From assembly GCA_002842085.1 (NCBI GenBank), contig PHCA01000001.1, positions 1,511 through 38,237 on the forward strand: DNA of 36,727 nt. The letters are read 5' to 3'. Every line of letters begins with the position of its first letter. Position 1 is the stretch's first letter. A program made the translations under genes and the position numbers. The stretch is from Chloroflexi bacterium HGW-Chloroflexi-1. Lineage in GTDB: Bacteria; Chloroflexota; Anaerolineae; CG2-30-64-16. Under the pieces are notes generated by a model. That model saw only the letters and a program-made list of their open reading frames with translations, ran no database searches and was not told where the DNA came from. Below are positions 8,274 through 24,196 of the stretch, piece after piece.

Positions 8274-8334
8274 GGGACACCTCCTTGCATCCCCAAACGG
8301 CCGTGGATTGCACGGTGGCAATGGGATAAGGCCG

Positions 8335-8413
8335 TTCCAGAAAAATAGATGTCCCAAGATCGCCGGTTTCCCTGGGAATCTCAGGAGGTTTTGGGACGAG
8401 TATTTTTCCGGAA
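8335..8413. repeat. Long imperfect inverted repeat in the protease 5' leader
   Basis: TTCCAGAAAAATA and GTCCCAA on the left pair with TTGGGAC and TATTTTTCCGGAA on the right, around a GC-rich centre. It lies inside the predicted transcribed leader of the C25 gene (promoter at 8488-8517, start codon at 8273), so it could fold in the mRNA; it may equally be a REP-like element. Confidence 0.6.
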
Positions 8414-8652: not shown

Positions 8653-8724
8653 TTCCTGATCCCTGCCTCCTGTCTCCTGTCCCCTGTCCCCTGTCTGGCG
8701 AACCCCGAGATGTATCCAGTGCAA

Positions 8725-8747
8725 CGTGATGCGCACTATACATCACG
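8725..8747. promoter_or_regulatory. Inverted repeat upstream of the regulator promoter
   Basis: CGTGATG-N9-CATCACG, a perfect 7-bp inverted repeat 46 bp upstream of the -35 box at 8793. Related words (CATCATGTGAG, TGCATGTGTGCGATGAG) follow. A possible activator or repressor site for the divergent region. Confidence 0.4.
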
Positions 8748-8792
8748 TGCATCATGTGAGCTATGCATGTGTGCGATGAGGCATTTGTGAAC

Positions 8793-8821
8793 TTGACAAC
8801 GAGAGCGAAGTGTGTTATCTT
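8793..8821 (+). promoter_or_regulatory. Promoter toward the PocR-type regulator and sulfur module
   Basis: TTGACA, a 17-bp spacer and TATCTT. The start codon at 9060 is now about 230 bases downstream because a 167-bp element sits between; without that insertion the leader would be about 57 nt. Confidence 0.65.
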
Positions 8822-8843
8822 ATGCATAAGGTTGTAAAGTATC

Positions 8844-9010
8844 GTAACTACTCAGCCGCCGTGTCATTGCGAGCGTTTTTTGCGAAGCAATCTCGGATTG
8901 CCGCAATCGAGATTGCCGTAATCTCCTGGCACTGAACGCGAGGATTGCGGCAATCCCGATTGCTTCGTCGGCAAAAAACGCCTCCTCGCAATGACAGGCT
9001 GAGTAGTTAC
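8844..9010. mobile_element. MITE-like element with terminal inverted repeats and target duplication
   Basis: The ends are a perfect 14-bp inverted repeat (GTAACTACTCAGCC / GGCTGAGTAGTTAC). It is flanked by the 8-bp direct repeat AAAGTATC (8836-8843 and 9011-9018), as expected for a transposition target duplication. The inside is itself a long imperfect palindrome with GTCATTGCGAG near the left and CTCGCAATGAC near the right. There is no coding capacity, so it is a non-autonomous element. Confidence 0.85.
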
Positions 9011-9018
9011 AAAGTATC

Positions 9019-9035
9019 GCACATGCTGCATGTGC
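9019..9035. promoter_or_regulatory. 17-bp palindromic operator candidate
   Basis: GCACATGCTGCATGTGC is a perfect palindrome around one central base. It lies 25 bp before the regulator start codon and directly beside the MITE target duplication, which suits an autoregulatory operator in the original short leader. Confidence 0.5.
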
Positions 9036-9059
9036 CTACAGTGAAGGTAATGTGACGTG

Positions 9060-9842
9060 ATGGCCGATCTGTTGACGACCAGGCAAGTCCAAGACATCCT
9101 CCAGGTGGACCGCACGACGATCTACCGGATGGTTGACGGCGGGCAACTGCCGGCGATCCGGGTCGGCAAACAGTGGCGCTTCGACCGGGCCGAGATCGAG
9201 CGTTGGCTGCATGCCCAGGCGGCCTTGCCGGCCAGCAGCGCCTCGTCCATGAATGGCCCAACGCCGGCCGCGGTGGCCAGGCCGGCCGGCCACCTCTCCG
9301 AGTTGTTGCCGCTCCAATGCAGCCAGATGATCCAGGACGCGTTTGCGGATGCGCTGGGCGTGATGATCGTGGTCACCGACATGCAGGGGCAGCCGGTCAC
9401 CCAGGTGAGCAACGCCTGCGGCCTATACGACGCCGTGATGGGGGACCGGGCCGCGATTGCGCGTTGCATCGCCAACTGGCAGAAGCTCGTCGGCGCCGCG
9501 ATGTTGGAGCCCAGGTTCGCGCCCAGCGACCTGGGGTTGCTGTGTGCCCGGGGCTTGATTCGCGGCGGCAACGAGCTCAAGGGGATGGTGTTTGTCGGCG
9601 GGATCGCGCCGGAGGGGTGGCCGCCGCCGGCGGAGCAAATCACGGCCATTGCGACGCACTTCGGGCTGGAACCGGGTTACGTCGCGGCCAACATCGATGC
9701 CGTGCACCGGTTGGACAAAGCGGCCCGGGACAAGGTGTTGCAGTTCGTCCAGCGCATCGCCGACATCTTCGCGCACATTCTCGAGGATCGCAACGCGCTC
9801 TACAGCCGGCTACAGGCCATCGCATCGTTGACCGTGTTGTAG
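9060..9842 (+). CDS. HTH/PocR-domain transcriptional regulator
   Basis: 260 residues. Residues 1-50 form an excisionase/MerR-like helix-turn-helix ('LTTRQVQDILQVDRTTIYRM', then 'WRFDRAEIERWLHAQ'). After a linker, about residues 80-240 form a PocR-type sensory domain ('VVTDMQGQPVTQVSNACGLY', with a conserved cysteine in 'ARCIANWQK'). PocR domains sense small ligands in many bacterial regulators and kinases. GTG at 9057 is an alternative start. It is followed on the same strand, 124 bp later, by the SQR-DUF1641-TusE-DsrE genes, so it probably controls them; that role is inferred from position. Confidence 0.8.
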   Translation: MADLLTTRQVQDILQVDRTTIYRMVDGGQLPAIRVGKQWRFDRAEIERWLHAQAALPASSASSMNGPTPAAVARPAGHLSELLPLQCSQMIQDAFADALGVMIVVTDMQGQPVTQVSNACGLYDAVMGDRAAIARCIANWQKLVGAAMLEPRFAPSDLGLLCARGLIRGGNELKGMVFVGGIAPEGWPPPAEQITAIATHFGLEPGYVAANIDAVHRLDKAARDKVLQFVQRIADIFAHILEDRNALYSRLQAIASLTVL

Positions 9843-9966: not shown

Positions 9967-11199
9967 ATGAAGCAACTGTTGATCCTGGGAGCCGGGACCG
10001 CTGGCACGATGGTCGCCAACCGGCTCAACCATCTGCTCGATAGCGACGAGTGGAAGATCACGATCGTGGACCAGCACGAGACGCACTACTACCAGCCGGG
10101 TTTTCTGTTCATCCCGTTTGGGATGTACAGTAAGAACGACGTGATGAAGCCCAAGCGCGACTTCATCCCGGCCGGCGTCGAAATGATCATGTCGCCCATC
10201 GAGCTCATCGAGCCGGAACACAACCGGGTGCGGATCCAGAAGGACGGGCGCTACCTCAACTATGACTTCCTGGTCATCGCGACCGGCACGGGGACACGGC
10301 CGGAGGAGACCCCTGGACTGGCCGAGCACGAATGGTACAACTCGATCTACGATTTCTACACCATCGAAGGCGCGCTGGCGCTGGCGAAACATCTGCGCAC
10401 GTGGCAGGGTGGCCGGCTGGCGCTCAACATTGTCGACACCCCGATCAAGTGCCCGGTGGCGCCGTTGGAGTTCATCATGCTGGCCGACTGGTTCTTCTAT
10501 GAGCAGGGCATCCGGGATCGGGTGGACCTGACCCTGGTGACGCCATTGCCGGGCGCTTTTACCAAGCCGGTGGCCTCCAAGCACCTGGGCAACATCCTGG
10601 AGCAGAAGGGGATCAAGGTCGTGCCGGAGTTTTTGATCGAGCATGTCGATCCGGACGCTAAGAAGCTGGTCTCTTACGACGAGAAGGAGATCGAGTACGA
10701 TCTCCTGGTCACTGTGCCGCTGAACAAGGGCAGCGACGTGATCGCCCGGTCAGAGATGGGGAATGAGCTGAACTACATCCCGGTCGACAAGCACACTTTC
10801 CTGTCGCCGAAATACCCAAACATTTTCGTCCTGGGTGATGCGGCGGACGTGCCGACCTCCAAGGCCGGCTCGGTGGCCCACTTCGCCGTGGATTGCTTCT
10901 CCGAGAATTTCCTGCGCTACATCGATGGCCTGGAGATGCTGCCGACCTTCGACGGCCATGCCAATTGCTTCATCGAATCCGGTTTCGGCAAGGGCTTGCT
11001 GATCGACTTCAACTACGATGTCGAGCCGTTGCCGGGGCGCTATCCGTTGCCCGGCGTGGGGCCATTCAAGCTCCTGCAAGAGTCGGAGATGAATCACTGG
11101 GGCAAGATGATGTTCCGTTGGATGTATTGGAATATCCTGCTCAAGGGGCAAGAGTTGCCGTTGCCGGCTCGCATGAGCATGGCCGGCAAGTGGAAATAG
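9967..11199 (+). CDS. Sulfide:quinone oxidoreductase-like flavoprotein
   Basis: 410 residues. It has an N-terminal FAD-binding motif 'ILGAGTAGTMVANRL', a second 'VIATGTGTRPEETPG', and a C-terminal FAD motif 'NIFVLGDAADVPTSKAG'. A conserved cysteine lies in 'DTPIKCPVAPLEF' (Cys162), with further cysteines in 'VDCFSENF' and 'GHANCFIESGFG'. This matches the SQR/flavocytochrome c-like family, which oxidises sulfide to bound sulfane sulfur and passes electrons to quinone. No transmembrane helix; the C-terminus is amphipathic, fitting peripheral membrane binding. AGGAGAAG precedes the ATG. The downstream sulfur-carrier genes support sulfide or sulfane-sulfur oxidation rather than another disulfide-reductase role. 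Confidence 0.85.
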   Translation: MKQLLILGAGTAGTMVANRLNHLLDSDEWKITIVDQHETHYYQPGFLFIPFGMYSKNDVMKPKRDFIPAGVEMIMSPIELIEPEHNRVRIQKDGRYLNYDFLVIATGTGTRPEETPGLAEHEWYNSIYDFYTIEGALALAKHLRTWQGGRLALNIVDTPIKCPVAPLEFIMLADWFFYEQGIRDRVDLTLVTPLPGAFTKPVASKHLGNILEQKGIKVVPEFLIEHVDPDAKKLVSYDEKEIEYDLLVTVPLNKGSDVIARSEMGNELNYIPVDKHTFLSPKYPNIFVLGDAADVPTSKAGSVAHFAVDCFSENFLRYIDGLEMLPTFDGHANCFIESGFGKGLLIDFNYDVEPLPGRYPLPGVGPFKLLQESEMNHWGKMMFRWMYWNILLKGQELPLPARMSMAGKWK

Positions 11200-23933: not shown

Positions 23934-23993
23934 GCCGGTTCCTTATAGTATTACCCAGTAACATTCGCGTGGATCGCGAGAATCTTTGACGGC

Positions 23994-24105
23994 GTCATTG
24001 CGAGCGGTTTTTGCGAAGCAATCGAGATTGCCGCAATCTCCCTCATGTGTCAGAGATTGCTTTGCTTCGTGCCTCGCAACCGCACACCCCGCTCCTCGCA
24101 ATGAC
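23994..24105. repeat. GTCATTGCGAG...CTCGCAATGAC element
   Basis: An 11-bp perfect terminal inverted repeat enclosing GCGAAGCAATCGAGATTGCC and partial inverted copies. It is the same family as the MITE interior at 8844-9010 but lacks the outer GTAACTACTCAGCC ends and has no evident target duplication. It fills most of the 263-bp gap between the sufU start and sufS end; no gene is seen there. Confidence 0.8.
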
Positions 24106-24196
24106 TACCATGTTTGGTTGCGGCTGGAGGCCGCGCTATGAAGGTGTGAAGTGAACGGCTTTCCGAAAGGAGCAGTCCCTTCACACCCGTGATAGA

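What the first reader, a model, noticed from the sequence alone, without database searches (positions are those of the whole stretch)
8836..9018. MITE-like element inserted between a promoter and the sulfur-module regulator
14-bp perfect inverted ends with an 8-bp target duplication (AAAGTATC). Removing it restores a short leader from TTGACA-17-TATCTT to the start codon, with a 17-bp palindrome in the middle. The hairpin now sits in the 5' leader and could change expression of the regulator and the SQR operon.
Basis: seen in the sequence. Interest (0 to 1): 0.6.

Follow-up and report, generated by a model that had tools for sequence, protein, structure and literature searches.

The report
IS66-type MITE in regulator's leader
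A small, gene-less jumping element, one of roughly a hundred in this apparent Chloroflexota genome, has landed between the promoter and the start of a gene regulator next to sulfide-oxidation genes; its ends match IS66-type insertion sequences, so it is real but largely ordinary.

Summary
A 167-bp element (8844-9010) has perfect 14-bp inverted ends (GTAACTACTCAGCC) and lies between two copies of AAAGTATC. It belongs to a family of about 100 copies in the same genome: 204 end matches against 3 for the reversed control. In 39 sampled copies the flanks agree over exactly 8 bp and no further. A same-genus genome has a clean empty site for one sibling copy. No same-species empty site exists for this locus, but family orthologues of the regulator lack the element; four show a consensus promoter 63-106 bp before the start codon, against 267 bp here and 92 bp without the element.

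The transposase type was identified. IS66-family elements of the ISBst12 group in related genomes have near-identical ends, and several have perfect 8-bp duplications; the published active element ISDge4 has the same architecture. The window's own assembly has no detectable IS66 transposase, so the family is mobilised in trans or stranded.

The interior resembles a pair of CGTC-type REP palindromes, a repeat class reported to lack a transposase; 36 of 39 copies carry this core. That is the most interesting part, but true REP membership was not settled. The effect on expression is untested.

The parts
8793..8821 (+). sigma-70-type promoter TTGACA-17-TATCTT of the regulator
   Evidence: consensus scan 10/12; TTGACA-type promoters with 17/18 spacing also 63-106 bp before the start in four orthologues
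8836..8843 (.). left target-site duplication AAAGTATC
   Evidence: sequence; 8-bp duplication is the family rule
8844..8857 (+). left terminal inverted repeat GTAACTACTCAGCC
8844..9010 (.). 167-bp non-autonomous IS66/ISBst12-type element (MITE), no convincing gene inside
8862..8892 (+). REP-like unit TGTCATTGCGAGCGTTTTTTGCGAAGCAATC
   Evidence: compared with the text of PMC3733652
8893..8957 (.). central spacer with GATTGCCGCAATC-type palindromes
   Evidence: I1, I4, D2
8958..8996 (-). second REP-like unit, opposite orientation, tag (GACA) outward
   Evidence: I5-I7
8997..9010 (-). right terminal inverted repeat
9011..9018 (.). right target-site duplication AAAGTATC
9019..9035 (.). host palindrome GCACATGCTGCATGTGC, possible operator or small hairpin
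9060..9842 (+). regulator gene: HTH_17 plus PocR sensory domain
9967..11199 (+). type III sulfide:quinone reductase, first gene after the regulator; followed by DUF1641, DsrC-like and DsrE2-like genes

Best explanation
The feature is a miniature inverted-repeat transposable element. A transposase of the IS66 family, ISBst12 group (TnpC only), recognises the GTAACTACTCAGCC ends, moves the DNA between them and makes an 8-bp target duplication. No such transposase is visible in this assembly, so it acted in trans from an element since lost, not assembled, or carried by another genome. This copy landed in the 5' leader of a PocR-type regulator, 15 bp after the -10 box if the left duplication is counted as target, and left the promoter, the candidate upstream operators, the ribosome site and the gene intact. 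Inferred step: if the promoter is used, the mRNA carries a hairpin of about 60 base pairs ending 49 nt before the start codon. The likeliest consequence is a modest change in transcript processing or stability (for example by RNase III) rather than shut-off, because the hairpin has no U-tract and lies upstream of the ribosome site.
For: Perfect ends and duplication at this locus. Family of about 100 copies: 113 forward and 91 reverse end matches against 3 for the reversed pattern. Of 60 end pairs in sampled loci, 31 have perfect and 8 have 7/8 duplications; over those 39, positions 1-8 match in 37-39 of 39 and position 9 in 11 of 39 (the 39 were chosen for matching, so the drop at position 9 is the informative part). 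Empty site for the sibling copy C144:4076-4160 in same-genus genome G001, 90% identity over 191 bp. Orthologues of the regulator lack the ends, and those with a recognisable promoter have short leaders. IS66/ISBst12-type elements in the class have ends GTAACTGCTCAGCC, GTAACTGCTCAGGC, GTTACTACTCAGCC and GTAACTACTAAGCC, with perfect 8-bp duplications in several. One genome (Umea3p4_bin-0630) holds both this MITE type and a 1559-bp IS66 element with GTAACTGCTCAGGC ends and an 8-bp duplication. ISDge4 of Deinococcus geothermalis, reported to transpose actively, has ends GTGACTACTCAGCA/GTAACTGCTCAGCA and an 8-bp repeat (PMC12898284).
Against: No IS66 transposase gene was found in the window's own assembly, by profile or by protein, although that assembly is a 419-contig draft. 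No IS66 element with exactly identical 14-bp ends was found; the best match is 13/14. The element has not been seen to move, and the empty site at this locus is known only from divergent relatives.
Confidence: 0.92

Rival explanations
1. It is a REP-type palindrome cluster (CGTC REPs) spread by its own route, for example RAYT enzymes, and the outer ends are only decoration.
For: REP-like cores GTCATTGCGAG occur 399 times in the genome, and about two thirds of the first 100 listed have no exact outer end nearby (comparison by eye of the and one search lists).
Against: 8-bp duplications abut the outer ends, not the REP cores. Elements with the same ends but other interiors also have perfect duplications (for example L076:1003-1273 and L079:316-403). 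RAYT/IS200 enzymes do not typically make 8-bp target duplications (own knowledge).
Confidence: 0.04
2. The hairpin is a host regulatory RNA (attenuator or riboswitch-like leader) of the sulfur module.
For: It sits in a leader and folds very stably.
Against: No Rfam match. The same element lies at many unrelated loci. Orthologous leaders lack it.
Confidence: 0.02
3. The insertion has become a functional switch: the MITE hairpin or its protein-binding sites now control the regulator and the SQR operon. (This is an added claim on top of the MITE explanation, not an alternative to it.)
For: Position between promoter and start codon. Published MITEs can change neighbouring mRNA stability (stated in PMC3733652).
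Against: No expression data. No conservation of the insertion in relatives. Promoter and ribosome site unaltered; predicted pairing around the ribosome site is not increased by the element.
Confidence: 0.15

Closest known systems
ISDge4 (IS66 family, ISBst12 group), Deinococcus geothermalis, PMC12898284
   Same: Ends GTGACTACTCAGCA/GTAACTGCTCAGCA match 12 of 14 positions each; 8-bp target duplication
   Different: Autonomous, with a 449-aa transposase; the window element has no gene
1.5-kb ISBst12-type elements of related genomes (L108, L113, L114, L115, L118, L135, L253)
   Same: Ends 12-13 of 14 identical; 8-bp duplications in L114, L118, L135 and L253
   Different: Encode a TnpC of about 490-510 aa; no REP interior
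CGTC-tagged REPs, PMC3733652
   Same: TGTC/CGTC tag followed by AT at the start of the stem; two units in opposite orientation with a structured spacer; dispersed
   Different: Reported without any transposase and not listed for Chloroflexi; here framed by IS66-type ends with target duplications; stem length does not fit cleanly
Bacterial MITEs such as ERIC, NEMIS and Nezha (listed in PMC3733652)
   Same: Short, gene-less, palindromic, multi-copy, near genes
   Different: Different ends and different transposase families (own knowledge)

Membership tests
MITE | Short (under about 600 bp), no transposase gene | tested here: met
   167 bp; the ORF of at least 80 aa that covers most of it (83 aa, minus strand, 8864-9115) runs into host DNA
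MITE | Terminal inverted repeats with target duplication | tested here: met
   14/14 and 8/8
MITE | Multiple dispersed copies | tested here: met
MITE | Empty sites | tested here: met
   Sibling copy, G001:C373; at this locus only divergent relatives
MITE | Autonomous partner with the same ends in the same genome (usual, not obligatory) | tested here: inconclusive
   No IS66 transposase in the own draft assembly, but multi-copy elements are often lost from draft assemblies; present in one other MITE-bearing genome
IS66 family, ISBst12 group (as non-autonomous derivative) | Ends beginning GTAA and matching ISBst12-group elements | tested here: met
IS66 family, ISBst12 group (as non-autonomous derivative) | 8-bp target duplication | tested here: met
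IS66 family, ISBst12 group (as non-autonomous derivative) | TnpC mobilises these ends | not testable with these tools
   needs a transposition assay
CGTC REP (interior) | CGTC/TGTC/CCTC tag, stem starting with AT | tested here: met
   TGTC-ATTGC...GCAAT in both units
CGTC REP (interior) | Stem of 8-9 bp, loop of 4-5 nt, CCA tail | tested here: inconclusive
   Only 5 bp pair cleanly within one unit by eye; the published consensus figure is not held

The most novel reading that the evidence does not exclude
In Anaerolineae-type Chloroflexota, CGTC-type REP pairs, a widespread palindrome class reported to have no transposase, are spread as cargo of IS66/ISBst12-type MITEs, which would give at least some of these REPs a DDE transposase as vehicle.
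Probability: 0.35. Interest if true: 0.5.

Novelty: new member of a known kind. Interest (0 to 1): 0.35.

Why it matters
It is a well-supported, apparently undescribed MITE family, shared across several Chloroflexota genomes, with an identified transposase type. If its interior really is a CGTC REP pair, it offers a testable route by which a long-orphaned repeat class moves. For the local gene it is a natural leader insertion in front of a sulfide-oxidation regulator.

Tried and rejected
IS4/IS5-type transposases (PF01609): three in the genome, none with matching ends. IS66 in the own genome: none by profile or by protein. Rfam: nothing. Viral contigs: no match to ends plus core. Literature search for the core sequence: 150 papers, of which the 20 listed looked unrelated (primer-type hits). 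Other joined-flank queries did not give clean empty sites: at L011 and L156 the same-genus genome carries different DNA at the junction; L076, L087, L027 and L080 were not alignable across the junction. A same-genus orthologue of this regulator was not found (best 36% identity in a 75%-complete genome).

Full report
Observation. The element proper is 8844-9010 (167 bp), with 14/14 complementary ends and AAAGTATC on both sides. The exact 14-mer ends are far beyond chance in the window, and the strand folds with z = -12.6. It has no Rfam match.

Other copies. A search of the window's own genome (4.45 Mb, 419 contigs) gave 111 matching pieces; these include both strands and fragments, so they are not 111 copies. 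Counting ends gave 113 forward and 91 reverse matches with up to one mismatch, against 2 and 1 for the reversed pattern, hence roughly 100 copies. Among 60 end pairs within 450 bp in the sampled loci, 31 have a perfect 8-bp duplication and 8 have 7/8; many of the rest are wrong pairings or decayed copies. For those 39, agreement between left and right flanks is 37-39 of 39 at each of positions 1-8 and 11 of 39 at position 9. The 39 were selected for high agreement, so the informative result is that agreement stops at 8 bp. Lengths run from 74 to 273 bp.

Empty sites. Flanks of 14 sibling copies were joined and searched in the nine nearest genomes. The copy at C144:4076-4160 (L148) aligns across the junction to same-genus genome G001 at 90% identity over 191 bp, with no element there. 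At L011 the MITE is also absent in G001, but different palindromic DNA sits there, so this is not a clean empty site. The window locus itself has no same-species comparison. Fourteen orthologues of the regulator lack the ends in their upstream regions. Four of them (L042, L043, L047, L049) have TTGACA-type promoters 106, 63, 94 and 95 bp before the start; the window has 267 bp, or 92 bp without the element and one duplication. In the other ten the promoter could not be placed with confidence. L042 shares TTGACAACGAG with the window.

Transposase type. The own genome has no IS66 hit and three DDE_Tnp_1 hits without matching ends. Of 298 genomes of the class, 85 carry IS66-type genes. Of the single-gene elements of about 1.5 kb, several have ends one or two bases from the MITE's, some with perfect 8-bp duplications: L114, L118 and L135 (GTAACTACTAAGCC, 8/8), L108 (GTAACTGCTCAGCC/GGC), L115 (GTAACTGCTCAGGC) and L113 (GTTACTACTCAGCC). 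Other, longer IS66 elements in the same set have different ends (GTAAGCG...), which serves as an internal contrast. In Umea3p4_bin-0630 a 1559-bp element with GTAACTGCTCAGGC ends and duplication CATTATTT (L253) sits in the same genome as a MITE of this type (L226). The published ISDge4 has the same architecture and was reported to transpose (PMC12898284). Assignment to the ISBst12 group is therefore by ends, duplication length and element anatomy.

Distribution. In these, 42 of 49 paired ends have duplications of at least 7/8 (where several partner ends were possible the one with the best duplication was taken). The host phylum of the window is inferred from this and was not tested directly.

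Interior. Just inside the ends lie TGTCATTGCGAG units in opposite orientation, tags outward. They resemble the CGTC REPs of Di Nocera et al. (PMC3733652), which were reported to lack a transposase and were not listed for Chloroflexi. Of 39 well-framed copies, 36 carry the core; many of these copies were found through a query that contains the core, so the proportion may be inflated. The core alone occurs 399 times in the genome, and a comparison by eye of the two position lists suggests about one third of the listed cores have an exact outer end within 20 bp. So the MITEs carry, and perhaps captured, a repeat that also exists independently. Stem and loop criteria were not met cleanly, so membership is left open.

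Function at this locus. The downstream genes are a HTH_17-PocR regulator, a type III sulfide:quinone reductase, DUF1641, DsrC-like and DsrE2-like proteins. The promoter lies upstream of the insertion and the ribosome site downstream, so both survive. If transcribed, the leader gains a hairpin of about 60 base pairs without a U-tract. Predicted pairing around the ribosome site was not increased by the element, although single-strand folding of a 280-nt leader is a weak guide. A modest effect on RNA processing is the most likely outcome; none is demonstrated.

Verdict. It is a new family of a well-known kind, with an identified transposase type and an unusual REP-like interior.

Noticed in passing
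window 8334-8413: A second palindromic repeat (GTTCCAGAAAAATAGATGTCCCAA...TTGGGACGAGTATTTTTCCGGAAC, about 80 bp) with at least six further copies near sampled MITE loci of the same genome; in L162 a MITE-like end is fused into one copy.
   Followed up: partly
window 23993-24106: A pair of REP-like cores (CGTCATTGCGAG / AGTCATTGCGAG) in opposite orientation without the GTAACTACTCAGCC ends, i.e. the interior repeat without the MITE frame.
   Followed up: partly
L246:150-235 approximately, and flanks of L008, L021, L155: A third palindromic repeat (GTGGCTCGGTCAGGAGACCGGCCACAGC) lies beside several MITE copies and occupies the MITE's place in the same-genus genome at the L011 locus.
   Followed up: no
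window 8700-8790 and upstream of orthologues: Repeated ATGCA/TGCAT-type half-sites upstream of the regulator's promoter in the window and in most orthologues, possible operator sites.
   Followed up: no
window 9967-11199: The SQR matches an NCBIfam model for the selenoprotein subtype of type III SQR (NF049943, above cut-off) although it reads as a full-length ORF without an internal stop, presumably a cysteine form.
   Followed up: no
L187 (JACQWW010000254.1): One MITE of this type sits in a MAG labelled Elusimicrobia; transfer or binning error not distinguished.
   Followed up: no
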